Shown: one piece after another, positions 14,936-40,604 of the stretch
Position numbering within the stretch: position 1 is the stretch's first letter
Layout of the letters: each line of letters starts with the position of its first letter
Origin: Arthrobacter yangruifuii
GTDB taxonomy: Bacteria; Actinomycetota; Actinomycetes; Actinomycetales; Micrococcaceae
Length of the DNA stretch: 64,000 nucleotides
Assembly (NCBI RefSeq): GCF_009192775.1
Contig: NZ_VTFX01000002.1
Span: 1 to 64,000, forward strand
Direction: 5' to 3'
Position numbers and translations under genes: made by a program
Notes under the pieces: model-generated
What the model was told of the DNA's origin: nothing
What the model saw: only the letters and a program-made list of their open reading frames with translations
Databases searched by the model: none

Positions 14936-16135
14936 ATGCGGCTTCAGTTGCTGACGCATTCCTATTCGCCGGAGCACAGCCCTCCCCAGCGCCGCTGGAC
15001 ACAGTTCAACCGGTATTTCCGCAGCCTTGGCTGGGACATTGATGTCATCACCCCCGTGGCCCACGCCCCGCACGGGCGGCGCACCCTGCCGAAACGCGAA
15101 GCCGGGCGCCCCTTCCGCCGGGACACCGGCCGGTTCGGCGAACGCATCCTCCGGGTCCCTTATCTCTGGCACCGCACCACCCGGCTCGGGCGGCTGCTTG
15201 ACCACTGCTTCAGCGCAGCAGCCTCCGTGGCGGCGGGAGTGATGACGCGCCGCCCCGACGCCGTGATCGTCACGGTTCCGAGCCTTCCCATCCTGGGGGC
15301 CGGGTACCTGGTGTCGCGGCTGCGGCGCGTTCCGTTTGTGGTGGATATGCGCGATGCCTGGCCCGATATCGCCCGCGACGCCCGGATAGTCAGGGGGAGC
15401 GCCAAGAGCGTGACGGAACGCGCCGTGGTGACGTTCCAGGAACGGGCGGACCTGGTGGTGACGGTCACGTACGGCTTCGCCGCCACTCTGCGCGACCGCG
15501 GGTTGAAAAACGTGGCCACGGTGGTGAACGGCGTGGATATTTCCGTGCGGGAGCTGCTGCCTCCGCCGCCCGAAGACCGGGACCGGCTGAACGTGCTGTA
15601 TCTGGGCAACCACGGCGAAAGCCAGCGGCTGGACCTGGTGGTGCGGGCTGCCGCCCTGGCCCGTGACTACGTACGGCTGACCATGGTGGGGCACGGCGTG
15701 CAGCGGCGGGAACTCATGGCACTGGCCAAGGAACTGGACGCGCCGGTCACCTTCCACGGCCCGGCACGCCGCCGCGAAGTCATGGAGCACTACCGGGAAG
15801 CGGATACCTGTGTCATTTCCCTGCGGGATGACTGGAAATCCTTTGAAACCACCATTCCGTCCAAAACGTATGAGGTATTGGCGGTAGGCCGGCATGTCAC
15901 TGGCATTGTCCGCGGCGAAGCCCGCACCATTATTGAAGAAGCGAATGCCGGCGACGTCGTTGATTCCTCGGCCGGAGCCATTGCCCAGCTGTGGAAGGAG
16001 CTGCACGCGGACCGCTCGCGGCTGCTGACCGGTACCAACGGCAGGGACTGGGTGCAGGACAACGCCAACCTCGACGCACTCTCCGCGGCATACGCGGACC
16101 TCCTGCGGAGCGTGGCGGCGGGACCGGCCGCGTGA
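14936..16135 (+). CDS. Glycosyltransferase family 4 protein
   Basis: This 399-residue GT-B enzyme has an N-terminal GT4 domain starting MRLQLLTHSYSPEHSPP and the acceptor-side segment VVDMRDAWPD (about 136-145). A C-terminal donor-binding domain has YLGNHGESQRLDLVV near residue 222. Donor and acceptor sugars cannot be read from sequence. A gggag site lies just upstream of the ATG. It is the first gene of the glycopolymer locus and overlaps the next by GTGA at 16132-16135. Confidence 0.88.
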   Translation: MRLQLLTHSYSPEHSPPQRRWTQFNRYFRSLGWDIDVITPVAHAPHGRRTLPKREAGRPFRRDTGRFGERILRVPYLWHRTTRLGRLLDHCFSAAASVAAGVMTRRPDAVIVTVPSLPILGAGYLVSRLRRVPFVVDMRDAWPDIARDARIVRGSAKSVTERAVVTFQERADLVVTVTYGFAATLRDRGLKNVATVVNGVDISVRELLPPPPEDRDRLNVLYLGNHGESQRLDLVVRAAALARDYVRLTMVGHGVQRRELMALAKELDAPVTFHGPARRREVMEHYREADTCVISLRDDWKSFETTIPSKTYEVLAVGRHVTGIVRGEARTIIEEANAGDVVDSSAGAIAQLWKELHADRSRLLTGTNGRDWVQDNANLDALSAAYADLLRSVAAGPAA

Positions 16136-17886
16136 GCGCCCTGAGATACGTCCGCAGTGCTGCCCTTGCCGCCGGCACCGTCCTGGAACACCTGGGTGAT
16201 GACCCCGTGGTCCTGACGCTTCAGGTGTCCCGGCGGCTGCCTGCGCGGGTGGTGCATCCGCTGGCGGCCGGTGCCGGGCGAATCGCCGGGCAAAGCTTCC
16301 TGGGCCCGCTGGCAGCATTCGTCCGCGGCGATGCCCCGGCCCTGTCCGGCGCCCTGGCCGCAGCTGCTGCGCCGGGCGGGACTCCCGGCAGCCGGCAGGC
16401 ACTCCGCCTGGCGGACGTTGCCGTTGCGGCAGGTTTTCCCCAGGAAGCCCGGCAACTGCTTGCGCAGGTACGCCCCGGAACCAAAGGGTTGCCGGGCACC
16501 GTGGCCCGCAGCCGGTGGCACGCCGGGGACATGAGCGGCGCCGTCGATGCCCTCTCCAACACGCGCGGTGCCGAGCGGCGGCAGCAGCGGCGGCTGGCAT
16601 CCGAGCTGGCCGTGTTCCAGGGCTGGCGGCCCCGGCTCGATCCCGTCCAGGCCTACACCGCGGATCCCGCAACGGTGCTGCACGTGCTCACCAATTCCCT
16701 GCCCCACACCGGCAGCGGCTACGCGCAGCGGAGCCATTCCATCCTGAAGGCGCAGCACGAGCTGGGCTGGAACGTCCATGCCGTCACCCGCCCCGGATAT
16801 CCCGTCCAGGTGGGGCGGCTCCTCGCCGGGGACCGGGACCGGATTGACGGCGTGACTTACCACCGGATCCTGCCGGCACGGCTTCCTTTCGGCATGCAGG
16901 GACGGCTGCAGCTGCAGGCGGAACGGACACTGGCCCTGGCCCTGGAGGTGCGGCCGGCGGTTCTGCATACCACCACGCACTTCGTCAACGGGCTGGTGAC
17001 CGCCGCCGTCGCCGAAGCCCTTGGTATTCCATGGATCTATGAGGTCCGCGGGCAGCTGGCGGATACATGGGCCTCGACCCGCCCCGCGGAGGCCCGGCAG
17101 AGTGAGAGGTACCTGCTCTTCCGGGAACGGGAAGCCGACGTCATGAAGCGGGCGGCCCTGGTGCCCACCCTCGGAACCGTGATGGCCGAACAGATTGCCG
17201 GCAGCGGGGTACCGCGGGACCGGATCCGCCTGCTCCCGAACGCCGTAGGGGAGGGATACCTCGACACGCCGGTGGCGGCAGCACAGGCCCGCCGCGCGCT
17301 TGGACTGGACCCGGACACTGAAATGATCGGAACGGTCAGCAGTCTGGTTGACTATGAGGGGCTGGATGACCTCATCACAGCCTTCGGTCTGGTCGCTGGC
17401 CGGCAGCGGCACCTCAAGTGCCTGATTGTGGGGGACGGGGCAGCGGCGCCCCGGTTGAAAGCGCTGGCTGCAGAGCTGGGAGTGGCGGACCGGGTAATCT
17501 TCACCGGCCGCGTTCCCCGTGCGCAGGCCCATTTGTACCATCAGGCAATCGACGTTTTTGTTGTGCCTCGGAAGGATTTAGACGTGACACGAGCGGTAAC
17601 CCCGCTGAAACCGGTGGAGGCCATGGCTTCCGCCCGGCCCGTAATAGCGAGCGACCTCCCTGCCCTGGGGGAACTGGTCCGGCACGGCGGGAACGGGCTT
17701 TTGGTCCGGCCTTCGGACCCGGAGCATCTCGCCGAGGCAATTACTTCACTGATGTCCGACGCCGGCCGGCGGGCCCGGCTCGGGTCCAACGGCCGCACCC
17801 ATGTGCTCGCCACCCGCACCTGGGGATCCGCGGCTGAACAGACCGTCCGGTGGTACCGAAGCCTCGCGTCATCAGGAGCAGCCTAA
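16132..17886 (+). CDS. Glycosyltransferase family 4 protein with N-terminal extension
   Basis: The 584-residue protein has about 180 N-terminal residues without a domain I recognise (Ala/Arg-rich, helical). A complete GT4 enzyme follows: TNSLPHTGSGYAQRSH near 187, IPWIYEVRGQLADTW near 300, a donor domain with VSSLVDYEGLDDLI near 403, and VPRKDLDVTRAVTPLKPVEA near 480. The GTG at 16132 is chosen because it overlaps the previous stop; the frame stays open upstream, but inside the preceding gene. It precedes the ABC exporter, whose start overlaps its stop codon (TAATG). Confidence 0.87.
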   Translation: MSALRYVRSAALAAGTVLEHLGDDPVVLTLQVSRRLPARVVHPLAAGAGRIAGQSFLGPLAAFVRGDAPALSGALAAAAAPGGTPGSRQALRLADVAVAAGFPQEARQLLAQVRPGTKGLPGTVARSRWHAGDMSGAVDALSNTRGAERRQQRRLASELAVFQGWRPRLDPVQAYTADPATVLHVLTNSLPHTGSGYAQRSHSILKAQHELGWNVHAVTRPGYPVQVGRLLAGDRDRIDGVTYHRILPARLPFGMQGRLQLQAERTLALALEVRPAVLHTTTHFVNGLVTAAVAEALGIPWIYEVRGQLADTWASTRPAEARQSERYLLFREREADVMKRAALVPTLGTVMAEQIAGSGVPRDRIRLLPNAVGEGYLDTPVAAAQARRALGLDPDTEMIGTVSSLVDYEGLDDLITAFGLVAGRQRHLKCLIVGDGAAAPRLKALAAELGVADRVIFTGRVPRAQAHLYHQAIDVFVVPRKDLDVTRAVTPLKPVEAMASARPVIASDLPALGELVRHGGNGLLVRPSDPEHLAEAITSLMSDAGRRARLGSNGRTHVLATRTWGSAAEQTVRWYRSLASSGAA

Positions 17887-18767
17887 TGGCCCGGACCAGG
17901 GAGGACACGTCTGCCGCGGTCCAGCCCCTTTCCGTGGACATCAGGGGACTGCAGCGCGTGGGCGCACGTCCGGGCTTTGTCGACTACCTCGTCCAGGTGT
18001 GGAACTACCGGCATTTCATCGCCTATGACGCTCGGTCACGGGTGCAGAGCGGGAACCGCAGGGACCGACTGGGCAGCGCCTGGCTGGTCCTGAACCCGAT
18101 CCTGAACGGATTGACCTATTTCCTGATCTTCGGCCTGCTGTTGAAAACCGGCAACGGGATCGACAATTTCATCGGCTACCTGGTCATCGGCGTTTTCCTC
18201 TTCCAGTTCAGCTCCCGGGCCATCACCAACGGCGCCCGGTCCATCCAGCAGAACCGTGCCGTGATCCAGGCCTTCAGTTTCCCGCGGGCCACCCTGCCCA
18301 TTTCGGTGAACCTGCGCGAGCTCCTGGCCAACATTCCCGTGCTGATTGTGATGATGCTGCTGGTCCTCCTCGTGCCGCCCACCGAGGAGATCACCTGGTG
18401 CTGGCTGCTGGTCATCCCCGCGCTGGCCCTGCAGTGGATCTTCAACCTGGGGGTGGGACTGATCCTGGCCCGGGTGATTTCCAAGGTCAATGACGTAGTC
18501 CACCTGCTGAGTTTCACCCTGCGGGCCTGGATGTACGCCAGTGCCGTGTTCTACAGCTATGACCGTTTCATCGACCAGCCGGTCATGCTGAAGATCCTCG
18601 AACTGAACCCCCTGTTCCAGGTCCTGGACATTGTGCGGGACTGCCTGCTCTACGCAACTGTTCCCTCCTGGCAGTCCTGGGCCGTCCTGAGCTGCTGGGC
18701 GTTGGGTGCGCTCGCCGTGGGCGCCGTGTACTTCTGGCGGGCGGAGGAAACCTATGGACGCGCCTGA
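17886..18767 (+). CDS. ABC-2 polysaccharide/teichoic acid export permease
   Basis: This 293-residue integral membrane protein resembles the Wzm/TagG permeases that move finished glycopolymers across the membrane. About six hydrophobic helices are visible, beginning with WLVLNPILNGLTYFLIFGLL after an amphipathic segment, and ending at GALAVGAVYFW. The pairing with a TagH-like ATPase directly downstream (overlapping genes) supports the role. The ATG at 17886 overlaps the upstream stop. Confidence 0.9.
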   Translation: MARTREDTSAAVQPLSVDIRGLQRVGARPGFVDYLVQVWNYRHFIAYDARSRVQSGNRRDRLGSAWLVLNPILNGLTYFLIFGLLLKTGNGIDNFIGYLVIGVFLFQFSSRAITNGARSIQQNRAVIQAFSFPRATLPISVNLRELLANIPVLIVMMLLVLLVPPTEEITWCWLLVIPALALQWIFNLGVGLILARVISKVNDVVHLLSFTLRAWMYASAVFYSYDRFIDQPVMLKILELNPLFQVLDIVRDCLLYATVPSWQSWAVLSCWALGALAVGAVYFWRAEETYGRA

Positions 18768-19635
18768 ACACTGCCTCGCAGAGGATCCCTGCGTCGTCAT
18801 CGACAAAGTGAGTATGAGTTACCGGGTGGCGTCAAGCGAAGCCGTCCCGGGCAGCGGTGCCGGCGGCTTGCTGCGCCGCATCATGGGCAAACCCAACCTG
18901 GTGACGGTCCACGCCCTGAACCCGATGTCGCTGGTGGCGGTCCGGGGCGAGTCCGTCGGCATTGTCGGACGCAACGGTTCCGGCAAAAGCACCCTGATGA
19001 AATTGATCAACGGCCAGGTCACACCGGACACCGGGGCTGTCTACGCCTCCAGCACGCCCATCATGCTCGGAGTCAACGCCGCCCTTGTCCCCGAACTTCC
19101 GGGGGACCACAACGTGGTGCTGGGTTGCCTGGCGATGGGGCTGACCTATGACGAGATTGCCGAGCGGTATGAGTCCATTGTGGAACTCTCCGGCCTGGAA
19201 AAAGCCATCCACCTGCCCATGCGCTCGTATTCCTCCGGAATGTCCTCCCGCCTCCGTTTTGCCATCGCGGCCAGCATCGACCCGGAGATCCTGCTTATTG
19301 ATGAAGCACTCAACACGGGCGACGCCCAGTTTGCGGACCGCAGCCGGAGGCGGATGGACGAACTGCGGGAGAACGCCGGCTGTGTTTTCCTCGTCAGCCA
19401 CAGCCTCGAAACTATCCTGGATATGTGTTCACGGGTGGTGTGGATGGATAAGGGGGATCTCCTGATGGACGGAGACCCCCGGGAAGTGGTGACGGCCTAC
19501 AAGGACTTCACCCGCCACCTGTCCAAGGGAAACAACATCAGCGCGGAGAAAATCCGTGAAGAGGCCATGCTCGCCCTCACGGTCACGCGTATCCGGGAAC
19601 GGTCCACCGGACGCCGCAGCGTAAGGGTCCAGTAA
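18754..19635 (+). CDS. ABC transporter ATPase for glycopolymer export (TagH/Wzt-like)
   Basis: The 293-residue ATPase has Walker A GRNGSGKST, an ABC signature YSSGMSSRLRFAIA and Walker B ILLIDEALNTGD, as in the TagH/Wzt clade. It ends soon after the ATPase core, with no long C-terminal carbohydrate-recognition domain of the Wzt type. Substrate recognition probably lies elsewhere. The ATG at 18754 follows gcggagga and overlaps the permease gene by 14 bp. Confidence 0.92.
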   Translation: MDAPEHCLAEDPCVVIDKVSMSYRVASSEAVPGSGAGGLLRRIMGKPNLVTVHALNPMSLVAVRGESVGIVGRNGSGKSTLMKLINGQVTPDTGAVYASSTPIMLGVNAALVPELPGDHNVVLGCLAMGLTYDEIAERYESIVELSGLEKAIHLPMRSYSSGMSSRLRFAIAASIDPEILLIDEALNTGDAQFADRSRRRMDELRENAGCVFLVSHSLETILDMCSRVVWMDKGDLLMDGDPREVVTAYKDFTRHLSKGNNISAEKIREEAMLALTVTRIRERSTGRRSVRVQ

Positions 19636-21537
19636 ATGGCGTCCCTGCAGGATCTTCGTACCGGTCTCTGGCACCTGCGTGCGGGCGGGCCGGCGGAGTT
19701 GCGCGAATGGAAAGTGCGGCGGGCGGCCGAACGGGGGTTCGCCGACCCCGCAAACGCCCGCGGCGTGGAAGCCGGCTGGATAGGCCGCGGTGCGAAACGG
19801 CGCCTGTCCATTCCCGCGGCCGCCGTTCCAGGCCGTCCGCCGCGGCGCAGCGACCTGAAAGTCGGTGTCATTCTCGACGAGTTTTCCGCCGCAGCCTTCG
19901 CCTTCGAGTGGCACACCGTGGCGCTGGATCCGGAGAGCTGGCAGCAGCAGCTCACCGACCAGGCCGTGGACCTGGTTTTCGTGGAGTCCTCCTGGGCCGG
20001 CAACAGCCGGCTCTGGCGCGGAAAACTGGCCGGCCCCGCCGGCCCCGCCGCCGCCCTCGTGGACCTATTGGCCTACAGCCGCAGCCAGGGCATCCCCACC
20101 GTCTTCTGGAATAAGGAGGATCCGCCGCACTACGAGGATTTCCTCCCTGCCGCGGCGCTGTTTGATCATGTGTTCACCTCCGATGTCCGCCGGGTGGAGC
20201 ACTACCGGCGGGACCTGGGCCATGACAATATCGGCGTCCTCCCGTTTGCTGCCCAGCCGGCCATTCACAACCCGGCACGGCCCAAGCACGGCCGCCATTC
20301 CCGGGACGTTGGTTTCGCCGGGATGTATTTCGCGCACAAATACCCGGAGCGGCGTCAGCAGATGGACATGCTCCTGGGCGGGGCGATGGACGCGAAGCTG
20401 CCCCTTGGCCTGGAAATCTTCTCCCGCAAGCTCGGCGGGGACCCCAACTACCAGTTCCCGGCACCGCTGGACTCCAGGGTGGTCGGCTCGCTGTCCTATC
20501 CGCAGATGCTCTCTGCCTATAAGGCCTACAAAGTATTCCTGAACGTCAACTCGGTGGTGGATTCCCCCAGCATGTGTGCCCGGAGGATCTTCGAGATCAG
20601 CGCGGCCGGCACCCCCGTGATCAGCACGCCCAGCGACGCGGTGGAGCAGTTCTTCACACCGGATGAGGTTCCCGTTGCCTCCACCCGGGAAGAAGCGGCG
20701 GCACTAACCGGCGGCCTGGTCCGCAATGCCGAATTCAATGACCGCACCGTTCACCGGGCCCAGCGCAGAATCTGGTCCGCCCATACCTATACCCACCGGG
20801 CGGAAACCATTGTGGCCGCCGCGGTGCCGCTGAAGTCCCGTCCCGTGACCCGTCCCACGGTGTCAGCCCTGGTGCCGACCATCCGCCCGCACCAGCTGGA
20901 GAACGTCTTCCGGACCCTCGCCGCCCAGCAGGACGTGGACGTGGAGCTGGTCCTGCTGACACACGGTTTTGTCCTCGCGCCGGAACGGCTGCAGGAGCTC
21001 CAGGCTGCCTCCGGTCTGCGGAAGGTCCGGCTGCTGACGGCCGGCGCCGAGGTGTCCCTGGGGGAGTGCCTGAACCGCTGCGTCCGGGCGGCGTCCGGCG
21101 AGGTGGTTGCCAAGATGGACGACGACGACCATTACGGTCCGCGCTACCTCAGCGACCAGCTGTACGCCCTGGAGTATTCCGGGGCCGATGTGGTGGGCAA
21201 ACAGGCCCACTACATGCATCTGCGCAGTTCCAACGCCGTCCTCCTGCGCTTCGGCCACCGCGAACACCGGTACACGGACTTCGTGATGGGACCGACCATC
21301 GTCACCCGCCGCACCCTTGCCCTGGACCTGCCTTTCCCGTCACTGGGGCTGGGCGAGGACACGGGCTTCCTGAAGCAGGCCGCCGCCGCCGGAAAACGGA
21401 TCTACTCGGCGGACCGCTTCAACTATTACCAGGTCCGTGAAGCAGACGGACATACGTGGAAGGTCGATGATGCCACTTTGCTGGCGTCGGGCGACCTTCG
21501 ATTCTATGGGGAACCAAATGAACACACAGACATATAG
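19636..21537 (+). CDS. Two-domain glycosyltransferase (CgeB-like GT + GT2)
   Basis: The 633-residue protein joins two catalytic modules. Residues about 70-395 resemble the DUF3880/CgeB-type GT-B family, with HSRDVGFAGMYFAHKYPERR and FEISAAGTPVISTPSDAVEQF. Residues about 415-633 form a GT2 domain (TVSALVPTIRPHQLENVF) with a DxD-like KMDDDDHYGP metal site. The start codon follows the ABC ATPase stop with no gap, so it is probably cotranscribed with the exporter. Linked sugar additions in one polypeptide are inferred. Confidence 0.85.
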   Translation: MASLQDLRTGLWHLRAGGPAELREWKVRRAAERGFADPANARGVEAGWIGRGAKRRLSIPAAAVPGRPPRRSDLKVGVILDEFSAAAFAFEWHTVALDPESWQQQLTDQAVDLVFVESSWAGNSRLWRGKLAGPAGPAAALVDLLAYSRSQGIPTVFWNKEDPPHYEDFLPAAALFDHVFTSDVRRVEHYRRDLGHDNIGVLPFAAQPAIHNPARPKHGRHSRDVGFAGMYFAHKYPERRQQMDMLLGGAMDAKLPLGLEIFSRKLGGDPNYQFPAPLDSRVVGSLSYPQMLSAYKAYKVFLNVNSVVDSPSMCARRIFEISAAGTPVISTPSDAVEQFFTPDEVPVASTREEAAALTGGLVRNAEFNDRTVHRAQRRIWSAHTYTHRAETIVAAAVPLKSRPVTRPTVSALVPTIRPHQLENVFRTLAAQQDVDVELVLLTHGFVLAPERLQELQAASGLRKVRLLTAGAEVSLGECLNRCVRAASGEVVAKMDDDDHYGPRYLSDQLYALEYSGADVVGKQAHYMHLRSSNAVLLRFGHREHRYTDFVMGPTIVTRRTLALDLPFPSLGLGEDTGFLKQAAAAGKRIYSADRFNYYQVREADGHTWKVDDATLLASGDLRFYGEPNEHTDI

Positions 21538-22804
21538 TCCCGGAGGAACCACCACGGGAATCTCGACCGTCGCCGTCATCGGCCTGGGCTACATCGGCCT
21601 GCCGACCGCCGCCATCCTCGCGGGTAAAGGGCTGCACGTGATCGGCGTCGACGTTAATCCGTACACCGTGGAGGCCGTGAACGAAGGCCGCGTGCCGTTT
21701 GTGGAACCGGATCTGGGAGTCCAGGTGGCCGGCGCCGTTAGCCAGGGGCACTTGGTTGCCCAGTCGGCCACCCCTCGCGCCGACGCGTACATTGTGGCCG
21801 TCCCCACCCCCTTCAAAGCCGACAAGAGCGCCGACCTGGTCTATGTGGAGCAGGCAGCACGGAACATCGCCCCCCGGATCCAGCCGGGCAACCTGGTGAT
21901 CCTGGAATCCACCTCGCCCCCCGGAACCACCCAGCGGCTGGCGGACGTCATCCTGTCCCTGCGCCCCGACCTGGCGGCGGAGGCCAACGGCGGCAAGGCA
22001 GCAGTGCTCTTCGCCCACTGTCCCGAGCGGGTACTGCCCGGCCGCATCATGATCGAGCTGGTCACCAATGACCGCATCATCGGCGGACTGACTCCCGAAG
22101 CCGCGACGGCGGCCGCCGCCCTCTACAGCACCTTCTGCCAGGGCGGCATCCACCTGACCGACGCTGCCACCGCCGAAATGGCCAAACTGGTGGAAAACGC
22201 GTACCGGGACGTCAATATTGCCTTCGCCAACGAACTGTCCGTGATCAGCGGCAACCTCGGCATCGACGTGTGGAACCTGATCGACCTGGCCAACCACCAC
22301 CCGCGCGTGAACATCCTGCAGCCGGGGCCCGGGGTTGGGGGACACTGCATTGCGGTGGATCCCTGGTTCATCGTGTCCGCCGACCCGGAAAACTCCAAGC
22401 TCATCCGCACCGCACGTGAAGTCAATGACGCCAAGCCGGACCACGTGGTGGCCGCCGTGGAGTCCGCGATCGCTGGACAGACAGCACCCACCATCACTGC
22501 CCTGGGCCTGGCGTTCAAAGCCAACGTGGATGACGTGCGTGAGTCACCCGCTGTGGAGATTGTGCGGCGGCTCGCGGACCGCAACCCGGGTGCCCGGATC
22601 ATGGTGGGCACTCCGTTCCACGAGCCAAACCTGCCGGACGCACTGGCGGGCCTGGGGAACGTGTCCCTGACCGGCACCGATGCCGCGTTGGAGGCTGCCG
22701 ACGTCGTTGTCCTCTTGGTGGATCACGATGCGTTCCGGGAGATTACCCCCGCGCAGCTGAGCGGCAAGAAGATTGTGGACACCCGGGGATTCTGGCGGAG
22801 CTGA
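21518..22804 (+). CDS. wecC: UDP-N-acetyl-D-mannosamine dehydrogenase
   Basis: This 428-residue NAD-dependent enzyme oxidises UDP-ManNAc to UDP-ManNAcA. The Rossmann motif VIGLGYIGLPTA is near residue 20, and the catalytic Cys lies in GVGGHCIAVDPWF. ALGLAFKANVDDVRESPA marks the C-terminal UDP-binding domain. The ATG at 21518 lies inside the end of the previous gene (20-bp overlap); an ATG at 21506 is an alternative. Its partner epimerase, wecB, is on the opposite strand 17 kb away. Confidence 0.93.
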   Translation: MNTQTYSPGGTTTGISTVAVIGLGYIGLPTAAILAGKGLHVIGVDVNPYTVEAVNEGRVPFVEPDLGVQVAGAVSQGHLVAQSATPRADAYIVAVPTPFKADKSADLVYVEQAARNIAPRIQPGNLVILESTSPPGTTQRLADVILSLRPDLAAEANGGKAAVLFAHCPERVLPGRIMIELVTNDRIIGGLTPEAATAAAALYSTFCQGGIHLTDAATAEMAKLVENAYRDVNIAFANELSVISGNLGIDVWNLIDLANHHPRVNILQPGPGVGGHCIAVDPWFIVSADPENSKLIRTAREVNDAKPDHVVAAVESAIAGQTAPTITALGLAFKANVDDVRESPAVEIVRRLADRNPGARIMVGTPFHEPNLPDALAGLGNVSLTGTDAALEAADVVVLLVDHDAFREITPAQLSGKKIVDTRGFWRS

Positions 22805-22805
22805 T

Positions 22806-26117: not shown

Positions 26118-26897
26118 ATGTCTATGAGGATTGCGATGAAACATATCAGGCCCATGCTGGTGGAACACCGAATATTTCTCGGCGGCCCCGGAGTGACGAC
26201 GTTCGAGGAGAGTGGGAGAACGTATAAGGATGATGTGATGATCGACATTCCATCGGGCGTAATTATGGAGCCTTACTCGACCTATTATGCGGGCAGTGCC
26301 GTGCAGATGGTCACCATGGGGTCCTTCTCGTATATTCTCAGTCGCATGCACGCATCGGTAAGCATCGGACGTTACACGTCCATCGCACTTGGTGTACGGG
26401 TTATGGGAAACAGGCACCCTTTGGAAAGGGTTTCCACGAGCCCCTCGTTTTACAAGAATGGTCTTGTGATGAAAACGTATCAAGCTGATAACGGTGTCAC
26501 CTCGACCTTTGAACCGTTTGACGAGAAGATTGATCCAATTACTATTGGTAATGATGTGTGGATTGGGGAAAATGTAACGTTGGCCCACGGTGTAACTATC
26601 GGCGATGGTGCCGTGGTAGCCGCCAACTCCGTAGTCACAAAAGATGTGGCGCCGTTTGCTGTTGTCGGGGGCGTTCCTGCGCGGAAGATAAAAGACCGTT
26701 TCTCACATTCGATAATCGCCAAACTTGAAGAACTCCAATGGTGGCGGTATTCTCCAGAGTCATTGTCGGGTCTCGATTTAATAGATCCTGAGAACTTTTG
26801 CGTGAAATTGGCTGATGGCATTGCTTCGGATCAAATCATTCCCTATGTTCCGCCCGGCGTTCTTACTTATGAAGACTTCGAAAGTTTACGGCCGTGA
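26118..26897 (+). CDS. Hexapeptide-repeat acyltransferase (CatB/VatD-like)
   Basis: The 259-residue protein belongs to the left-handed beta-helix acyltransferases, probably an O-acetyltransferase acting on a sugar. It has a catalytic-His-like [10 protein letters not shown] segment and clear hexapeptide repeats ([20 protein letters not shown] and following), then [12 protein letters not shown]. Its codon use is more AT-rich than the flanking glycosyltransferases, suggesting separate acquisition. The true start may be the ATG at 26124. A role in decorating the polymer is inferred. Confidence 0.85.
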
Positions 26898-33913: not shown

Positions 33914-36900
33914 ATGCTCGGATGGCAGGCCGCCTACGCGAAAGCACGAAGTGATGAGAAAAAGGGTAAGTGGGACTCTGCCATCCAGATATACTCCTCA
34001 CTCATCCGCCATGGAGAAGATGAGAACCCTAGGGTCGTATTTCGCCTCGGGCATGCCTTGTTTCGGCGCGATCGGTTAGAGGAAGCTGCCCAGTACCTGG
34101 AGCGCGCCGTCTCCTTGGAACCGGGGAACGCCAACTGGCACTATCGGTTGGGATTCGTCCTAGAGCGACAAAAAAGTTATGCCAGTGCGATTCTTCATTA
34201 CGACGCAGCGCTCGAAATCGACCCTACACAGACCAAGTGGCAAGATCGCAAGCTGAAGTGTGCTGCGCACATTGACAACCAGCAACGTGCTGTGCGTACA
34301 TCGGAACTCAATGACGTGATGGGTAGTAACGGGCCCGATTGGGAACGATTGGACCTGTTGGAAGCCGGCTATGACGTCCACCAATCGGATAAGAACTGGT
34401 TGAAGAGTCTGGCCGCGGCACGTTTCCGCATGCTGCGGTATGAAGGGGCTGCAGAGCTGTACACAGAGGTAGTAGAGCTCGACCCTTTGGACGCCGAGTC
34501 CCACTTCATGCGGGGATGGGCGTGGCAGAAGTGCGGGCGTACCGTGATAGCTGATAAATGCTTCGCTCGTGCCTCGGAGCTCGATACCCGGCATGACGCA
34601 AAAAGCTTTGGTGTTGGCGGTTTCTATCAGAGCAGAGGCCAATGGCGGCTTGCAGCGGAGGCATATGTTAGTGAATTGAGGGTCCAACCCGAGAATCCGG
34701 AACTCAACTTTCGGGCGGGAATGGCCCTGCAAAAAATTTACGCTTGGAAAGAATCCGAACGGTATCTAGCCCGGGCAGTGGTGCTGAATCCCGCAGTTCC
34801 ACAGTGGCACTACCGCCGCGGTTTGTCCTTCGAGCGCCTCGGCGAGATGCACCAGGCCGCCGCCAGTTACGCCGAGGCTGCGAGTAGATCGAATGGCAAG
34901 AATCCCTACTGGTCTTACCGCCTAGGCGAGGTGCGAGCGGCTATGGGAGATTACGAGGGCGCTTGCGATGCCTATCGGGAGTCGTACACACCTCCTAAGG
35001 CCTCTGACCTGGACCAAATGAGCGACGCAGGTAATGCTCGGAACGATTATGACGAGAACCTGCTGCATCAGACATTGCTGGAAGCCCTATCCAGCCAATC
35101 GGGGAGCCTCTGCTATATTCTCGGGCGTAAAGCCGAAGCCCTAGGGAAGTTGACAGTGGCTGAAGACGCATACAGAGCAGCGCTTGCTAGGCTGGAAGAA
35201 CACTCTTCAGAAGTCCATTACCGCCTCGGACGGGTCTTGGATGGGCAACATAAATGGCGCGAAGGTGCGGAAGTCTATTCAAATGTCAGGATATTCAAGC
35301 GACCCTTCGGTGTGGATGTAGCGCCATACTTAAAGTCGGCAAGTTCCAAAAAATCCATGACATATTTGGAGTACGCCGAAACCGTTCGGATTGAAGACCG
35401 TGTTGTTCTATACGAGAGCAGCCACGGTGTATCCGTCTCGTGTAACCCGCTGGCGATTTACAGACAACTGATTGCGGACCCTCGCTTCGAGGGATTCACC
35501 CATGTTTGGGTTTTGAACGAAAAGCGCCGTATACCCGCGGAAATGCGCGATCGGCCGGACGTCATATTCATATCGAGAGAATCTGATTTATATCTCCGCT
35601 ATATCGCATCAGCAAAATATCTTATCAACAACAACACATTCCCTCCGTACTTCGTTCGCCGTGTTGGGCAGTACTACCTGAACACCTGGCATGGGACTCC
35701 GATTAAGACACTCGGGCGTGATATCAAGAGCGGCGTAATGGACCACAAAAACGCTGCGCGGAATTTTCTCCAGGCAACGCACATGGTATTCCCAAACAAG
35801 TTCACTGCCGACTGCCAAATGGATAAATACGATGTTGCGAACCTCTATGCCGGCGAGTTAGCGCTAACCGGGTATCCGCGGAATGATGTACTTGCGGTAC
35901 CCGATATAGTCGCCAATGAGGGTCTCCGTGAACGCCTAGGTATTCCTTTTGACAAAAAGGTTGTCCTCTATGCCCCGACTTGGCGCGGAACTCTCGCCAG
36001 TAAGAACTTGGACGAGACGCGGTTGGCCGAGGATCTAGATTCCTTTAGCAGTGATGAATGGCATTTTCTGTATCGAGGACATTCGGTTAACGATGGCTCA
36101 ATTTCGGGATCCTATACCGACCTCTACAGCGTTCCCGGGGATATTGATACCAACGACCTTTTGGCGATCGTTGACGTCCTTGTGACGGATTACTCGAGCA
36201 TTATGTTCGACTTCATGGCTACCCACAAACCTATCGTTTACTATGCCTATGACCTCGAGCAGTATCAATCGGAACGGGGCCTGTACTTCGACTTGAACGA
36301 CATGGGCGGTTTCCTGTGCGAGGACGTGGATAGCGCGCTTTCCGCGATTCGCTCTGCAGTACTTGGCGTCTCTGCCCGCAGCGTTAGTGCTCCATTCGTA
36401 CAGGAACTGGTTCGACTGGAGCAGGGCCAGTCCGCACGACGTGCAGTCGAGTTCTTCTTCTTCGGGAGCACCGAGTTTAAGCTTGCGGCGAGTGGTGACG
36501 GCCGGGCAAATGCGCTCTTCTATGCGGGATCATTCATTCCAAACGGCGTGACGGCTTCATATCTGAACTTAGTAAGTCAGTTGCCGGATGATAAATGGAA
36601 CTTCCATACCGTGGTTGATCCCGTCGCTGTCGCGTCCGAACCAGGTCGGCAAGCCAAATTCAATGCCAATCCGGCCCATATCCGAGCCATCGGAAGAGTG
36701 GGGACCCATCTTGTGACTCCAGAGGAGCGGTGGGTTATAGACAAGTTCAATACACAGCACGATCTTGATAGCGAAGAGTTATGGGATATATACCACCGTG
36801 CCCATCGCCGGGAATTTGTGCGAATATTTGGCCATGCAGAGTTTGATGCCATAATCTGCTTCGAGGGATATGCCAGATTCTGGGCATCCCTTTTAGGGGC

Positions 36901-37702
36901 ACCTTATATTGCGCCAAAAGTATCTTCTATATACCTGCACAGTGTGATGGGCCAAGAATGGAAACAGCGTTTCCCCTACCTTGAAGGCGTATTCCGGATT
37001 TATGACCGGTATGACCAACTTCTCTCGGTTAGCGAGAGCGCTTCCGAGGTGAATGAACGCGATCTGGTTCGGCGTTTTGATCTTCACACGAAGACATTCA
37101 AGTATGTTAACAATCTTCTTAACCCAACCGAGGTTATTCACGCTGCCGCAGATCCTTTGGATGAGGACATTGAACGGTGGATGCACCCGGACTACAAAAC
37201 TTTTGTATCCGTGGGGAGACTGTCGCCGGAGAAGGGACACCTGAAACTTCTGGAGGCATTTGCTGTTGTTGTCCGCAAATGTCCAGAAGCTAGGCTGATC
37301 ATAGTGGGCGATGGTCCCATGAAGACCAGGATCGTAGACGCGATCGAGCGGCTTGCTATATCGGACAATGTATTGATGGCCGGAATGCGCACGAATCCGT
37401 ATCCTATCGTTGACAGGGGCGACTTCTTCGTCTTTGCATCAGAGTATGAAGGTCAGGGAATTGCAGTTCTGGAAGCACTTATTCTCGGCAAGCCTGTAAT
37501 TTCCACCGATGTCGTCGGTCCCAAAAGCATCTTGAAAGGCGATTACGGACTCCTCGTTGAGAACACCCGTGATGGCCTAGCTCGGGGAATGATTCAATTT
37601 ATCGAAAACAATCCCGTGTACCGTGCGTTTGACTACGAGACATACCTGAAGGAAGGGATTGGAAAGTTCACCAGGCTGGCTCTGGGGGAATTGGAACGCT
37701 AA
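33914..37702 (+). CDS. TPR-CDP-glycerol glycerophosphotransferase-GT4 trimodular protein
   Basis: The 1262-residue protein has three modules. Residues 1-460 carry roughly nine TPR-like units with repeated WHYRxGxxxER segments, followed by a short linker. Residues about 490-840 form a TagF-type transferase with INNNTFPPYF, LNTWHGTPIKTLG, YAPTWRG and VLVTDYSSIMFDFM. Residues about 865-1262 form a GT4 enzyme with YAGSFIPNGVTASYLNL, VSVGRLSPEKGH and SEYEGQGIAVLEALI. An aggag site (33904-33908) supports the ATG. The whole gene is AT-richer than the flanks: 26 G or C in 60 bases at 36541-36600, against 39 in 60 at 21241-21300. It ends 9 bp before a bidirectional hairpin. Confidence 0.88.
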   Translation: MLGWQAAYAKARSDEKKGKWDSAIQIYSSLIRHGEDENPRVVFRLGHALFRRDRLEEAAQYLERAVSLEPGNANWHYRLGFVLERQKSYASAILHYDAALEIDPTQTKWQDRKLKCAAHIDNQQRAVRTSELNDVMGSNGPDWERLDLLEAGYDVHQSDKNWLKSLAAARFRMLRYEGAAELYTEVVELDPLDAESHFMRGWAWQKCGRTVIADKCFARASELDTRHDAKSFGVGGFYQSRGQWRLAAEAYVSELRVQPENPELNFRAGMALQKIYAWKESERYLARAVVLNPAVPQWHYRRGLSFERLGEMHQAAASYAEAASRSNGKNPYWSYRLGEVRAAMGDYEGACDAYRESYTPPKASDLDQMSDAGNARNDYDENLLHQTLLEALSSQSGSLCYILGRKAEALGKLTVAEDAYRAALARLEEHSSEVHYRLGRVLDGQHKWREGAEVYSNVRIFKRPFGVDVAPYLKSASSKKSMTYLEYAETVRIEDRVVLYESSHGVSVSCNPLAIYRQLIADPRFEGFTHVWVLNEKRRIPAEMRDRPDVIFISRESDLYLRYIASAKYLINNNTFPPYFVRRVGQYYLNTWHGTPIKTLGRDIKSGVMDHKNAARNFLQATHMVFPNKFTADCQMDKYDVANLYAGELALTGYPRNDVLAVPDIVANEGLRERLGIPFDKKVVLYAPTWRGTLASKNLDETRLAEDLDSFSSDEWHFLYRGHSVNDGSISGSYTDLYSVPGDIDTNDLLAIVDVLVTDYSSIMFDFMATHKPIVYYAYDLEQYQSERGLYFDLNDMGGFLCEDVDSALSAIRSAVLGVSARSVSAPFVQELVRLEQGQSARRAVEFFFFGSTEFKLAASGDGRANALFYAGSFIPNGVTASYLNLVSQLPDDKWNFHTVVDPVAVASEPGRQAKFNANPAHIRAIGRVGTHLVTPEERWVIDKFNTQHDLDSEELWDIYHRAHRREFVRIFGHAEFDAIICFEGYARFWASLLGAPYIAPKVSSIYLHSVMGQEWKQRFPYLEGVFRIYDRYDQLLSVSESASEVNERDLVRRFDLHTKTFKYVNNLLNPTEVIHAAADPLDEDIERWMHPDYKTFVSVGRLSPEKGHLKLLEAFAVVVRKCPEARLIIVGDGPMKTRIVDAIERLAISDNVLMAGMRTNPYPIVDRGDFFVFASEYEGQGIAVLEALILGKPVISTDVVGPKSILKGDYGLLVENTRDGLARGMIQFIENNPVYRAFDYETYLKEGIGKFTRLALGELER

Positions 37703-37710
37703 AATCCATG

Positions 37711-37763
37711 AGCTCCGGTGACGCTGTAGGTTCCGTAAGGCCACCTATAGCGTCACCGGAGCT
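37711..37763. terminator. Bidirectional terminator between convergent genes
   Basis: A 21-bp inverted repeat (37711-37731 with 37743-37763, one G-U pair) with an 11-nt loop lies between the trimodular polymerase gene and the minus-strand acyltransferase gene. Its right arm overlaps the stop codon of the minus-strand gene by two bases. It can stop transcription from both sides. Confidence 0.85.
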
Positions 37764-38472
37764 ATTCGTGGATGCTCTCCTCGTCAACAGTCGGTAGCCA
37801 GTAGGGCGTTTTAGCGACGCTGTCTCCGTCTGGCTTGTAAAAAGGCTTCGCTCGGGATAGGTGAGGGCGCTCCCACGCAATGTCACGACGTACAACTTTT
37901 GCCGGCACGCCAGCTGCTACGCAGTTATTCGGGACTATTCCTTTTAGAACTGCGCCAAAGCCTATGACTGAGCCGCTCCCTATCTTGGAACCTCCCAGAA
38001 CCACGGCTCGCTTTGCAAGCCATACATGGTTTCCGATGATGATGTCACGGGACAAGTTAACTCGCTTTCCGGTATTGACATCGAAGATGGGATGCGCGTC
38101 GTCGGCCCTTATCTCGTTCTCACTTGCTATCATTACGTCGTTACCGATGGTGACGGTTGTTCCCTCTACAGCGGAAATGACGCATGTGGCAGTAGTGGAT
38201 ACGTTGGCTCCCACCTTCACTTCTGAGTCCTGGCCGACCCGTATGAAAGCGGTAAAGGGTGCTACGGACCTGCTGGGCCCGATCTCTAGAATGCCGTTAT
38301 CGCAGTCGAACATAACTGTGAAACGTCCCAATCGGGCTTGATCTGAAACTATTAGCCGGTTGTTTGATCCCGTGAATTCTATGCTAATGCCAGTGCTGAT
38401 TGTCGGACCATTGTATATGATCTGATTCTGACGCTCATCGCTGTAATAGCCAAGCGTCGATATGCGTGTCAT
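37762..38472 (-). CDS. Hexapeptide-repeat acyltransferase (LbH family)
   Basis: The 236-residue protein has left-handed beta-helix repeats, with NDVMIASENEIRADDAHPIF, then IIGNHVWLAKRAVVLGG and the C-terminal GVPAKVVRRD typical of maltose-O-acetyltransferase-like enzymes. It probably acetylates a sugar of the surface polymer. A strong gaggagg site supports the ATG at 38472; an upstream in-frame start at 38502 would put the ribosome site inside the gene. It heads the minus-strand group with the DUF1792 gene and wecB. Confidence 0.86.
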   Translation of the reverse strand: MTRISTLGYYSDERQNQIIYNGPTISTGISIEFTGSNNRLIVSDQARLGRFTVMFDCDNGILEIGPSRSVAPFTAFIRVGQDSEVKVGANVSTTATCVISAVEGTTVTIGNDVMIASENEIRADDAHPIFDVNTGKRVNLSRDIIIGNHVWLAKRAVVLGGSKIGSGSVIGFGAVLKGIVPNNCVAAGVPAKVVRRDIAWERPHLSRAKPFYKPDGDSVAKTPYWLPTVDEESIHE

Positions 38473-38529
38473 GTCGCCTCCTCGAGAACCATGGGTCTGC
38501 ACAGATGTTTCATGGTCATAATTTCCCCT

Positions 38530-39435
38530 TTATACGCTTACAGGCAATTGTTCCGGCTGAGCACCGTTTTTGAAAACGTTCCTGTAGCTCGAGACCAAGT
38601 GGCCGATGTCGATAGCGTGTCGCGCACCCCCGGCCTCGGAGGCAAGGTGGCCCGCAAGAACGGTACCCGTGGGACCTAGGGCAATAAGGTAAACCTGGTT
38701 GTTGTCGGAACGTTTTCCGATGCGATCCTTTAACGCTTCCAGCGTGAAATATGCGTCTGTCGGTTCCGAATCGATTCGTTCGATACTGGCCACGTTGTCA
38801 AATAGTTCGGGTATCGGATCGAACCTAGATCCTCGGCCGGTGATGATGCATACATCCTTGTCCTGCCAAACGCTTCGCCAAGCGGCGACAGCGGCTAGGC
38901 CATGGCGCTGGAAAAAGATAGGACGAGACACGTGGGTATTTCCCCACTGTGCCTTTGAGGACTCAAGCAGAGGTTTCAGCTCATGCCATGTCTCCGCCCA
39001 AATTCCCATCCAAAGGCGAGTGGTGTACACGGTGGGCATAGCCTGGAGAAATGAAGAAGAACTATCGTCATAGGTCAAAAGTAGTTTACGTAAGTCGTCC
39101 GCCAGTGTGGGTGTGTACTTTTGGAATGTAACGTCAAACTCGGGCTGCAGCATAATCTTGATTTCGCCGTCCCCCCATCTACCGAGGGACTTGCCTTCTG
39201 CAACTGCGGCGACCGTTTCCATCATAGTCATCTGTCGGGATTGAATTATCCGATCGACCTCGATCAGCGTCTCTCGCATTGCGATTCGTCCCAAGACGTG
39301 CAGCATATTCGTCTGTTCGACACTTTGAGTGCGAATTTGGGTCAATTCACGTGTTTGTTTCTTCAATTCGATGTTTTGTTCGACCATCAGCTCAGCGAGC
39401 TTCGCGAGCAATGCTGAGTCAGGGTTGGTATTCAT
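38530..39435 (-). CDS. DUF1792 (GT-D type) glycosyltransferase with N-terminal coiled coil
   Basis: The 301-residue protein shows the DUF1792 signature SLGRWGDGEIKIML near residue 86 and later blocks such as CIITGRGSRFD. DUF1792 proteins include the GT-D fold glucosyltransferase of streptococcal Fap1 glycosylation, so sugar transfer is the likely activity. The first 45 residues are Glu/Gln/Lys-rich with heptad spacing and may form a coiled coil. ATG 39435 is favoured with a gggaga site 10 nt away; a TTG at 39441 is possible. wecB lies 29 nt upstream in the same orientation. Confidence 0.8.
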   Translation of the reverse strand: MNTNPDSALLAKLAELMVEQNIELKKQTRELTQIRTQSVEQTNMLHVLGRIAMRETLIEVDRIIQSRQMTMMETVAAVAEGKSLGRWGDGEIKIMLQPEFDVTFQKYTPTLADDLRKLLLTYDDSSSSFLQAMPTVYTTRLWMGIWAETWHELKPLLESSKAQWGNTHVSRPIFFQRHGLAAVAAWRSVWQDKDVCIITGRGSRFDPIPELFDNVASIERIDSEPTDAYFTLEALKDRIGKRSDNNQVYLIALGPTGTVLAGHLASEAGGARHAIDIGHLVSSYRNVFKNGAQPEQLPVSV

Positions 39436-39464
39436 TGACAAGCTATCTCCCTATGTAAATTCGC

Positions 39465-40604
39465 TTAAAGGTATGTTCCATGGCGCTCTAATTTGATCAT
39501 GATCATCTTGAGTGCACTTACGCTTCGTTGTGCGGCGGTGCCGTCCCCGTACGGGGTGATTGCTTCAGCCAGTGATTTGAAGTGTGTTTCGTCGTGCAGC
39601 AGGCGGTCGACTTCGAACACAATCCGGTCCTCGTCCGTCCCGATGAGTTTCACCACGCCGGCCTCGACGGCCTCGGGACGTTCCGTGTTTTCCCGCATCA
39701 CCAACACCGGCTTCCCCAGGCTCGGCGCCTCCTCCTGGACTCCACCGGAATCCGTCAGGATGACGTGCGCCAGGGACAGCAACCGGGTGAACTCCCCGTA
39801 TTCGAGGGGTTCGGTCACCAGGATGTTCCCGGCAGAACCCAGATAGGGGAGAACAGCCTCGCGCACGGCGGGGTTTCGATGGATCGGCAGGACGATGGTC
39901 AGATCCGGTTCGGCCGCGGCAATGCGGGCCAGGGCCCGGCCAATGCCCTGCATCGCCTCGCCTTGATTTTCACGCCGGTGGGTGGTCACCAGCAGGATCC
40001 TTCGGCCTGAAGATGCCAAGGCCTCCAACTGGGGATCCACAAAGGGGAGTTGTTTCTGCACGGTGGTCAGCAGAGCGTCAATGACGGTATTTCCGGTGAC
40101 GACAATGTTCTCGGCTTTAATGTTCTCGGCCAGCAGGTTGGCGCGGCTCGTTTCCGTCGGCGCCAGATGCAGGCTGGCGATCTGGGAGGTGATTTTGCGG
40201 TTGCCCTCTTCCGGGAAGGGGGACAGCGGGTTGCCGCTGCGTAGCCCTGCTTCCACATGGACCACGGGGATTCCGCAATTGAAGGCCGCAAGTGCGGCGG
40301 CAGTGGAGGTGGTGGTGTCGCCCTGAACCACTACAACGTCCGGCCGGTTCACGGCAAAAAGTTTATCCAGCCCGCTGATGGTCCGGATGAGGATCTCATT
40401 GAGTGACTGGCCGGGTTCGAAGATATTCAGGTCATGGTCCGGTGTGATACCGAATAGCTGGTTTACCTGGTCCAGCATTGTGCGGTGCTGCCCCGTCACC
40501 GTGACAAAGCACTCCAGACCGGGGGTCCGCTGCAGCTCAGCGATAATCGGTGCCATCTTGATGGCCTCGGGACGGGTCCCGTAGATAGGCATAATGACTG
40601 GCAA
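39465..40604 (-). CDS. wecB: UDP-N-acetylglucosamine 2-epimerase (non-hydrolysing)
   Basis: This 379-residue enzyme interconverts UDP-GlcNAc and UDP-ManNAc. It has the family start PIYGTRPEAIKMAP, the QGDTTT motif near residue 95, VHVEAGLRSG near 114, PFPEEGNR, and the C-terminal TDSGGVQEEA. The start is read as TTG at 40604: aggggtttct precedes it with good spacing, and the next ATG (40592) would remove the first strand. With WecC it provides UDP-ManNAcA for the polymer. Confidence 0.94.
   Translation of the reverse strand: MPVIMPIYGTRPEAIKMAPIIAELQRTPGLECFVTVTGQHRTMLDQVNQLFGITPDHDLNIFEPGQSLNEILIRTISGLDKLFAVNRPDVVVVQGDTTTSTAAALAAFNCGIPVVHVEAGLRSGNPLSPFPEEGNRKITSQIASLHLAPTETSRANLLAENIKAENIVVTGNTVIDALLTTVQKQLPFVDPQLEALASSGRRILLVTTHRRENQGEAMQGIGRALARIAAAEPDLTIVLPIHRNPAVREAVLPYLGSAGNILVTEPLEYGEFTRLLSLAHVILTDSGGVQEEAPSLGKPVLVMRENTERPEAVEAGVVKLIGTDEDRIVFEVDRLLHDETHFKSLAEAITPYGDGTAAQRSVSALKMIMIKLERHGTYL

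What the first reader, a model, noticed from the sequence alone, without database searches (positions are those of the whole stretch)
14936..40604. A 26-kb surface glycopolymer locus with both teichoic-acid-type and ManNAcA-type enzymes
One locus holds an ABC-2 export pair, several GT4/GT2 enzymes, WecB and WecC for UDP-ManNAcA, a LicC-like nucleotidyltransferase, O-acyltransferases and four proteins with a CDP-glycerol glycerophosphotransferase domain. Teichuronic acids of related Micrococcus contain ManNAcA, while TagF-type domains imply polyol phosphate. The combination suggests a mixed uronic acid and alditol-phosphate polymer, which I have not seen described for this lineage. Its position between ddl-DUF3515 and DAK2-recG suggests a variable insertion.
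Basis: partly seen in the sequence, partly recalled or inferred. Interest (0 to 1): 0.72.

Follow-up and report, generated by a model that had tools for sequence, protein, structure and literature searches.

The report
Swappable wall-polymer gene cassette in Arthrobacter
This stretch of an Arthrobacter genome looks like a swappable gene cassette for making a phosphate-containing sugar polymer of the cell wall, with a main enzyme resembling one known from animal-pathogen capsules and an unexpected enzyme in the place where relatives keep the usual building-block supplier.

Summary
In detail: 14,936-40,604 encodes an ABC-2 pair, GT4/GT2 enzymes, WecC, WecB, a LicC/PntC-like nucleotidyltransferase (NTPt), two hexapeptide acetyltransferases and four TagF-domain proteins, the only four found in the genome. 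The interval is variable. Of 25 same-genus genomes with both flanks on one contig, 9 have it empty and 16 carry 17-44 kb. The 17 filled loci read fall into a TagF class (10), a TagF-less class (5) and tandem carriers of both (2); WecB and WecC occur in all 17. ManNAcA therefore belongs to what both classes share, and the alditol-phosphate part is a swapped module. The 1,262-aa protein is a homologue of Cps3D, the TPR-TagF-GT-B capsule polymerase of Actinobacillus pleuropneumoniae. I propose an ABC-exported wall polymer: a ManNAcA-containing inner part extended as poly(glycosyl-alditol phosphate). Most interesting is NTPt: in 12 of 12 TagF-bearing loci and 0 of 5 TagF-less ones, in the slot where Phaeobacter and Paracoccus relatives have tagD, and with a 43% relative overlapping a TagF-family gene in Solidesulfovibrio. 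It may be a non-TagD alditol-phosphate cytidylyltransferase. Uronic/teichoic conjugates have a Streptomyces precedent (2025). New variant of a known kind; no chemistry is known.

The parts
12329..13486 (+). ddl, D-Ala-D-Ala ligase, left flank
13483..13956 (-). DUF3515 protein, left flank; the LCP-type gene found beside it in 23 of 25 relatives' loci is missing here
   Evidence: start chosen by me
14107..14862 (+). Pro-rich, secreted-looking protein, first gene of the locus (start chosen by me)
   Evidence: no Pfam family; in 16 of 17 filled and 0 of 9 empty loci
14936..16135 (+). GT4a glycosyltransferase
   Evidence: PF13692/PF13579
16141..17886 (+). GT4b glycosyltransferase (start chosen by me)
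   Evidence: PF00534
17850..18767 (+). Wzm/TagG-like ABC-2 permease
   Evidence: PF01061, NF050109 (below cut-off)
18757..19635 (+). Wzt/TagH-like ATPase (start chosen by me)
   Evidence: PF00005, NF010065/NF010066 (below cut-off)
19636..21537 (+). GT-B-like (PF13524) plus GT2 fusion
21503..22804 (+). WecC, UDP-ManNAc dehydrogenase (start chosen by me)
   Evidence: NF008286 above cut-off
22806..25991 (+). TagF1: GT2 + TagF domain (start chosen by me)
   Evidence: both catalytic His present
26118..26897 (+). AcT1: hexapeptide acetyltransferase
27183..29936 (+). TagF2: GT2 + divergent TagF domain
   Evidence: both His present
29933..32896 (+). TagF3: about 600 aa without a family match + TagF domain
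33122..33838 (+). NTPt: LicC/PntC-like nucleotidyltransferase, proposed CDP-alditol synthase
33914..37702 (+). TPR + TagF + GT4 polymerase, Cps3D homologue
   Evidence: 8qoy_A E 5.7e-218
37762..38502 (-). AcT2: hexapeptide acetyltransferase
38530..39441 (-). GT-D fold glycosyltransferase (SP_1767-like)
   Evidence: PF08759, TIGR03728 below cut-off
39465..40604 (-). WecB, UDP-GlcNAc 2-epimerase
   Evidence: TIGR00236 above cut-off
41024..41244 (.). right junction: stretch homologous to the empty site of G010
   Evidence: 87.6% over 226 columns
41168..42184 (+). DAK2, right flank

Best explanation
A serotype-like, exchangeable wall-glycopolymer locus. Inferred route: a WecA/TagO-type enzyme elsewhere loads GlcNAc-P on undecaprenyl phosphate; GT4a, GT4b and the GT-GT2 protein build a ManNAcA-containing inner oligosaccharide from UDP-ManNAcA (WecB, WecC), doing the job that TagA does in Bacillus. 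NTPt makes a CDP-alditol, most simply CDP-glycerol. TagF2, TagF3 and TagF1 act as priming/transition transferases, and the Cps3D-type protein alternately adds alditol phosphate (TagF domain) and an alpha-hexose (GT4 domain). The acetyltransferases and the GT-D enzyme decorate, Wzm/Wzt export, and an LCP ligase anchors the chain to peptidoglycan. Shown here: gene content, homologies, conserved catalytic residues, locus exchange. Inferred: every substrate, linkage and step order.
For: Cps3D homology over 436-1255 plus part of the TPR region, with the residues matching TagF H444 and H584 present. Both catalytic His in the four window TagF domains and in 44 of 44 relatives' TagF proteins whose alignment covers both sites. 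Empty and filled alleles with a clean junction. WecB/WecC in 17 of 17 filled loci, with or without TagF; a WecC orthologue of 62% or more in 20 of 29 genomes, none of them among the 9 empty ones. No WecG/TagA-family match in the genome. Two WecA/MraY-family genes, not told apart. LCP-type gene at the left edge in 23 of 25 relatives' loci by similarity, one of them scanned and PF03816; two LCP genes elsewhere in the own genome. Cps3D mechanism: PMC11666461 (sections 12, 14, 15 read).
Against: No chemistry. In M. luteus ManNAcA is in the repeating unit (PMC3005890, section 3 read), so it could be in the repeat here too. The own strain lacks the locus-side LCP gene. A TagD-like gene exists elsewhere in the genome and in 10 of the 12 TagF-bearing genomes, own included. 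Wzm, Wzt, GT-GT2 and WecC also differ by polymer class, so the shared part is not invariant, and TagF1 follows the flanks rather than being freely exchanged (r 0.77).
Confidence: 0.62

Rival explanations
1. ManNAcA is a backbone sugar: one mixed repeating unit holds ManNAcA and alditol phosphate.
For: WecB and WecC are inside the locus, and the WecC alleles differ by polymer class. M. luteus teichuronic acid has ManNAcA in its repeat (PMC3005890, section 3).
Against: WecB/WecC are equally present in the 5 TagF-less loci, and only one WecC copy was found beside both blocks in tandem G015 and G027. The polymerase resembles Cps3D, which uses Gal and Gro3P and no uronic acid (PMC11666461, section 12).
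Confidence: 0.25
2. Two separate polymers share one locus: a teichuronic-acid-like one from the core genes and a teichoic acid from the TagF block, possibly joined as in S. griseus.
For: G015 and G027 carry a TagF-less and a TagF block side by side, and G027 has two Wzm/Wzt pairs. S. griseus has a TUA-WTA conjugate (PMC13274773, sections 8 and 9).
Against: 16 of 17 filled loci have a single Wzm/Wzt pair. The large GT fusion (1,469-1,495 aa) of 3 of 5 TagF-less and both tandem loci is in none of the 10 TagF-class loci.
Confidence: 0.2
3. NTPt is a true phosphocholine or phosphonate cytidylyltransferase that decorates the polymer, and CDP-glycerol comes from the unlinked TagD-like enzyme.
For: Its nearest solved structures by sequence are PntC and LicC, and PntC by fold. 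A TagD-like gene lies at C5:525519-525974, and 10 of 12 TagF-bearing genomes, own included, have it.
Against: No LicD domain was found among the locus genes. The TagD-like gene has no close orthologue in TagF genomes G008 and G017 and is present in all 9 empty genomes at 57-88%. It has Tyr where Phaeobacter TagD has the Arg of the TagD signature (that Arg is essential in B. subtilis TagD per PMC8262930, section 5). NTPt sits in the tagD slot.
Confidence: 0.3
4. Exported, unanchored capsule or exopolysaccharide rather than a wall polymer.
For: The polymerase is capsule-type, and the own strain lacks the locus-side LCP gene.
Against: An LCP-type gene borders the locus in 23 of 25 relatives' loci, although it does so at empty sites too, and the own genome has two others.
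Confidence: 0.2

Closest known systems
TagF-like capsule polymerase Cps3D and the CpsA/CpsC/CpsD pathway of Actinobacillus pleuropneumoniae (PMC5974469, PMC11666461)
   Same: TPR-TagF-GT-B polymerase homologous over about 820 residues; priming by separate TagF-family enzymes (shown there, proposed here)
   Different: Gram-positive host; no poly-Kdo anchor expected; no LicD domain (the CpsC family) found among the locus genes; NTPt where other relatives have TagD
Classical wall teichoic acid pathway (TagO/TagA/TagB/TagF/TagGH + LCP)
   Same: ABC-2 export, TagF-type transferases, UDP-ManNAc supply, LCP-type gene beside the locus in relatives
   Different: no TagA/WecG match in the genome; WecC added; three of the four TagF domains are fused to glycosyltransferase domains
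Teichuronic acid of Micrococcus luteus (PMC3005890)
   Different: a Glc-ManNAcA polymer whose repeat holds no phosphate; its genes were not compared here
TUA-WTA conjugate and variable utr loci of Streptomyces griseus (PMC13274773)
   Same: uronic-acid polymer combined with alditol-phosphate polymer; species-variable gene cluster, absent from some species
   Different: ManNAc3NAcA/GalNAc polymer on ribitol WTA; the utr proteins were not compared here
Cytidylyltransferases grouped as COG1213 in PMC12275187 (LicC, IMPCT, CpgD, phosphoglutamine enzyme), and PntC
   Same: NTPt has LicC, PntC and IMPCT among its sequence or fold relatives
   Different: COG membership of NTPt not tested; substrate untested; genetic linkage to TagF-type transferases

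Membership tests
Group 2 TagF-like polymerase (Cps3D type) | TagF domain with catalytic His residues, flanked C-terminally by GT-B and N-terminally by TPR | tested here: met
Group 2 TagF-like polymerase (Cps3D type) | alternating glycerol-P and hexose transfer | not testable with these tools
   needs enzyme assay
Wall teichoic acid locus, classical | TagA/WecG-family ManNAc transferase | tested here: not met
   PF03808: 0 matches in the own genome; the same search rings in 7 of 14 control genomes
Wall teichoic acid locus, classical | ABC-2 exporter of TagGH type | tested here: inconclusive
   TagH and galactan-ATPase models match below cut-off
Wall teichoic acid locus, classical | LCP ligase available | tested here: met
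   two in the own genome; LCP-type gene beside the locus in 23 of 25 relatives' loci
Teichuronic acid of M. luteus type | UDP-ManNAcA synthesis genes | tested here: met
Teichuronic acid of M. luteus type | repeating unit of Glc and ManNAcA without phosphate | not testable with these tools
   needs chemistry; TagF enzymes argue against it for this locus
TagD-type glycerol-3-phosphate cytidylyltransferase, in the locus | HxGH nucleotidyltransferase (PF01467) in the cluster | tested here: not met
   3 PF01467 hits in the genome, none in the locus: NadD, a 163-aa frame at window 47078-47464 (not identified further), and the unlinked TagD-like gene
LicC/PntC-like cytidylyltransferase | GxGTRL...PK signature and similarity to LicC/PntC | tested here: met
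LicC/PntC-like cytidylyltransferase | CTP specificity and acceptor identity | not testable with these tools
   assay needed

The most novel reading that the evidence does not exclude
NTPt founds a second, TagD-unrelated kind of alditol-phosphate cytidylyltransferase that feeds TagF-type transferases, displacing TagD beside a Cps3D-type polymerase. Arthrobacter species swap whole teichoic and teichuronic modules onto a common ManNAcA-based foundation, as pathogens swap capsule serotypes.
Probability: 0.4. Interest if true: 0.65.

Novelty: new variant of a known kind. Interest (0 to 1): 0.52.

Why it matters
It gives environmental actinobacteria a capsule-like, exchangeable wall polymer whose main polymerase is shared with Gram-negative capsules, and it makes two questions directly testable: which enzyme supplies CDP-alditol where TagD is missing from the locus, and whether one ManNAcA-based foundation can carry either a teichuronic or a teichoic chain. 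By analogy, variable surface glycans of Streptomyces are receptors for interbacterial toxins (PMC13274773, sections 8 and 9 read).

Tried and rejected
Phosphonate decoration was considered because NTPt resembles PntC and AcT1 resembles a phosphonate-associated acetyltransferase family (TIGR03308, below cut-off). No phosphonate-synthesis family turned up among the locus genes; the genome was not searched for PEP mutase. Choline decoration is unlikely: no LicD domain; LicD was not sought elsewhere in the genome. The unlinked TagD-like gene as CDP-glycerol source was weighed and ranked lower. The named genome-contig scan gave one hit, 26% over query residues 5-104 (TPR part), and was not used. 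The order-level search for the polymerase never ran, so distribution outside the genus rests on (120 of 1,857 matches listed; only the 7,997 candidates sharing most words were scored; 12 plasmid records at E 1e-60; 3 of the 12 opened). Micrococcus itself was not examined. Loci of G002, G012 and G013 (split over contigs) were not read. The Prevotella NTPt relative (28.7%) has no listed genes and was left. Pairwise identities for the polymerase include cross-hits in the four TagF loci without a full orthologue; I quote own-versus-relative values instead. In one search the relatives' TagF domains had been cut out around a [WQ]HG motif, so the first His column was conserved by construction; I repeated the count from unanchored pairwise alignments: 50 relative proteins had a TagF-bearing window protein as best match, 6 (501-627 aa, all matching the TPR-TagF-GT4 protein) did not cover the sites and were dropped, 44 of 44 keep both His.
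Full report
What is there. The window is contig C2 of a 3.54-Mb, 99.55%-complete genome. The genus is inferred: most named relatives of its NTPt and the nearest named relatives of its polymerase are Arthrobacter. Between ddl-DUF3515 and DAK2-recG lie 16 genes, listed under parts. WecC (NF008286) and WecB (TIGR00236) pass the curated NCBIfam cut-offs, so UDP-ManNAcA synthesis is well supported. Four proteins hold a PF04464 domain above cut-off, and no other was found in the genome. The four window domains have both catalytic histidines, and so do 44 of 44 relatives' TagF proteins whose pairwise alignment covers both sites (an earlier count was partly conserved by construction, see Tried and rejected). 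None of the four looks dead.

The polymerase. The 1,262-aa protein (33914-37702) has TPR, TagF and GT4 domains. It aligns with Cps3D of A. pleuropneumoniae (8qoy) over residues 436-1255, whole-sequence E 5.7e-218, with further TPR matches, and its His593 and His723 line up with H444 and H584 of S. epidermidis TagF (residue roles from PMC5974469, section 13 read). Cps3D alternately adds Gro3P and alpha-galactose, and the N-terminal TPR part is needed to elongate primed poly(Gro3P) (PMC11666461, sections 12, 14, 15 read). Among the polymerases surveyed there, the TagF-GT-B order went with alpha linkages and GT-A-TagF with beta linkages (PMC5974469, section 6 read). TagF1 and TagF2 here have the GT2(GT-A)-TagF order. 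The best listed named relatives are from Arthrobacter, Paenarthrobacter and Pseudarthrobacter, with Gram-negative Aquabacterium and Comamonas at 42-44% (120 of 1,857 listed).

The locus is exchangeable. In 29 genomes of the genus, own included, ddl and DAK2 were located. In 25 both lie on one contig: 9 have them 1.7-2.9 kb apart (G004, G006, G009, G010, G016, G018, G020, G021, G022) and 16, own included, 17-44 kb apart. G002, G012, G013 and G024 are split. I read own plus 25 relatives; 17 are filled, G024 included. Ten are TagF class, five TagF-less (G001, G003, G007, G011, G023), and two (G015, G027) carry both blocks in tandem. WecB, WecC, GT4a, GT4b, Wzm, Wzt and GT-GT2 are in all 17. Relatives of NTPt, TagF1, TagF2 and TagF3 are in 12 of 12 TagF-bearing loci and 0 of 5 TagF-less ones. 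A full TPR-TagF-GT4 protein is in 8 of 12; of the other four, G014, G017 and G025 have a longer TagF3-type protein (1,208-1,227 aa) and G024 a second one of 1,239 aa, although G005, G015 and G027 have both a long TagF3-type protein (1,159-1,199 aa) and the polymerase. A close WecC orthologue (62% or more) exists in 20 of 29 genomes and in none of the 9 empty ones, and the 9 empty genomes have no PF04464 match: the locus is absent, not moved. G003, G007 and G023 have one stray TagF2-like gene outside the interval, without NTPt in the stretch held around it (about 1.5 kb each side). In the empty site of G010 the LCP-type gene stops at 2906, and homology to the right end of filled loci begins at 2909-2926.

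Where exchange happens. Mean pairwise identity (TagF pairs / TagF-less pairs / between classes): GT4a 78/73/72, GT4b 68/59/58, Wzm 84/72/59, Wzt 84/72/59, GT-GT2 81/61/55, WecC 81/75/64, WecB 81/90/76, ddl 85/89/87, DAK2 86/89/87. Correlation with DAK2 identity is 0.83 (DUF3515), 0.62 (ddl), 0.57 (GT4a), 0.46 (GT4b), 0.45 (WecB), but 0.09-0.21 for Wzm, Wzt, GT-GT2 and WecC. So a main exchange boundary probably lies between GT4b and Wzm; in G027 GT4b is 86% and the adjacent Wzm 62% identical to the own genes. Among the TagF genes the picture is uneven: TagF3, NTPt and the polymerase correlate weakly (0.16-0.17), TagF2 0.38, but TagF1 0.77, so TagF1 follows the flanks and the most exchanged part lies downstream of it. 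Own versus relatives, the polymerase is only 36-50% identical in the seven full orthologues, while in G028 ddl is 95%, GT4a 96% and WecC 90%. The low-GC3 genes (0.54-0.61 for AcT1, NTPt, polymerase, AcT2, GT-D, against 0.72-0.86 for the other locus genes) point to foreign origin. Wall teichoic acid cassettes are swapped similarly in B. subtilis (PMC8753576, abstract read).

ManNAcA and the inner part. Since WecB/WecC are in every filled locus read, whatever the chain genes, ManNAcA most likely belongs to something both classes need. The own genome has no match to the TagA/WecG family; TagA helps make the usual ManNAc-GlcNAc linkage unit (PMC7831098, passages seen). It has two WecA/MraY-family genes, which I did not tell apart. 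M. luteus starts teichuronic acid with GlcNAc and needs UDP-ManNAcA (PMC3005890, section 3 read). From memory, without a call, its linkage region carries ManNAcA residues next to GlcNAc. I infer a ManNAcA-containing inner oligosaccharide built by GT4a, GT4b and GT-GT2. This is the weakest step; ManNAcA in the repeat is the main rival.

Anchoring. A 338-aa protein of the LCP family in G003 (PF03816) has relatives at this place in 23 of 25 relatives' loci, G003 itself counted and empty ones included (the others were found by similarity, not scanned with Pfam). It is missing in G014 and the own window, and the G024 contig begins after it. Against G028 the own sequence lacks about 950 bases spanning most of that gene. 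The own genome has two other LCP genes, so wall anchoring remains possible. Because the gene is also beside empty sites, its neighbourhood alone does not prove that it serves this polymer.

NTPt. The 238-aa enzyme matches PntC (7.5e-8) and LicC (4.6e-5) by profile; its model (mean pLDDT 87.7, below 50 at residues 13-15) is nearest to PntC by Foldseek, with inositol-phosphate cytidylyltransferase and LicC among the matches. Enzymes grouped with LicC use choline phosphate, inositol phosphate, phosphoglutamine or phosphoglycerate (PMC12275187, passages seen). Three observations tie NTPt to TagF enzymes. First, co-occurrence in 12 of 12 versus 0 of 5 loci. Second, among 72,556 plasmid records its only relative above 40% is in Solidesulfovibrio carbinolicus (43%), where its gene overlaps a TagF-family gene by 4 bases, with no tagD among the 13 genes shown. 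Third, Phaeobacter and Paracoccus relatives of the polymerase have tagD as the next annotated gene upstream, the slot NTPt fills here. These gene tables are incomplete by the tool's own statement. Not in favour: S. nepalensis shows neither gene among the 11 listed; Phaeobacter also has a separate NTP-transferase-domain gene in the cluster, which gave no match to NTPt at E 1e-3; 9 of the 12 polymerase-bearing plasmid records were not opened. The genome's unlinked TagD-like gene is found in 10 of 12 TagF-bearing genomes, own included, but not as a close orthologue in G008 and G017; it is present in all 9 empty genomes, and it has Tyr where Phaeobacter TagD has the Arg of its RTPEISST motif. Non-TagD glycerol-phosphate cytidylyltransferases are mentioned as two exceptions in PMC8262930 (section 5 read; the cited source was not held), so the idea of an alternative enzyme is not wholly new.

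Novelty. A uronic-acid polymer joined to wall teichoic acid, from variable loci absent in some species, is reported for Streptomyces (PMC13274773, sections 8 and 9 read). The listings of my paper searches showed no description of this Arthrobacter locus, of a Cps3D-type polymerase in actinobacteria, or of a LicC-type enzyme serving TagF. They cover only openly licensed papers; as I recall, much of the older work on actinobacterial wall polymers is outside them. I rate it a new variant of a known kind.

Noticed in passing
window 14034-14037: Against G028 about 950 bases are missing here, removing most of an LCP-type gene that 23 of 25 relatives' loci keep.
   Followed up: partly
window 14107-14862: Pro-rich, secreted-looking protein with repeated DPVTG/DPGTG-like motifs; tracks the locus in 16 of 17 filled and 0 of 9 empty sites. 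Function unknown.
   Followed up: partly
G000:C5:525519-535910: TagD-like cytidylyltransferase about 9 kb from a second UDP-sugar dehydrogenase (35% to WecC): perhaps another surface-polysaccharide locus.
   Followed up: no
G014 locus (L069, beyond recG): An extra TagF2-like gene and a partial NTPt relative (59% over 118 aa) lie on the far side of recG.
   Followed up: no
G016 and G026 loci (L056, L055): Two LCP-type genes, one on each side of DUF3515.
   Followed up: no
G023 locus (L077, L078): Several genes split into pieces, DAK2 included; sequencing error seems likelier than decay.
   Followed up: no
L044:16471-18906, L071:1919-3577: DUF6270 proteins, one with an Asp2-like part, occur in relatives' loci beside the glycosyltransferases.
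   Followed up: no
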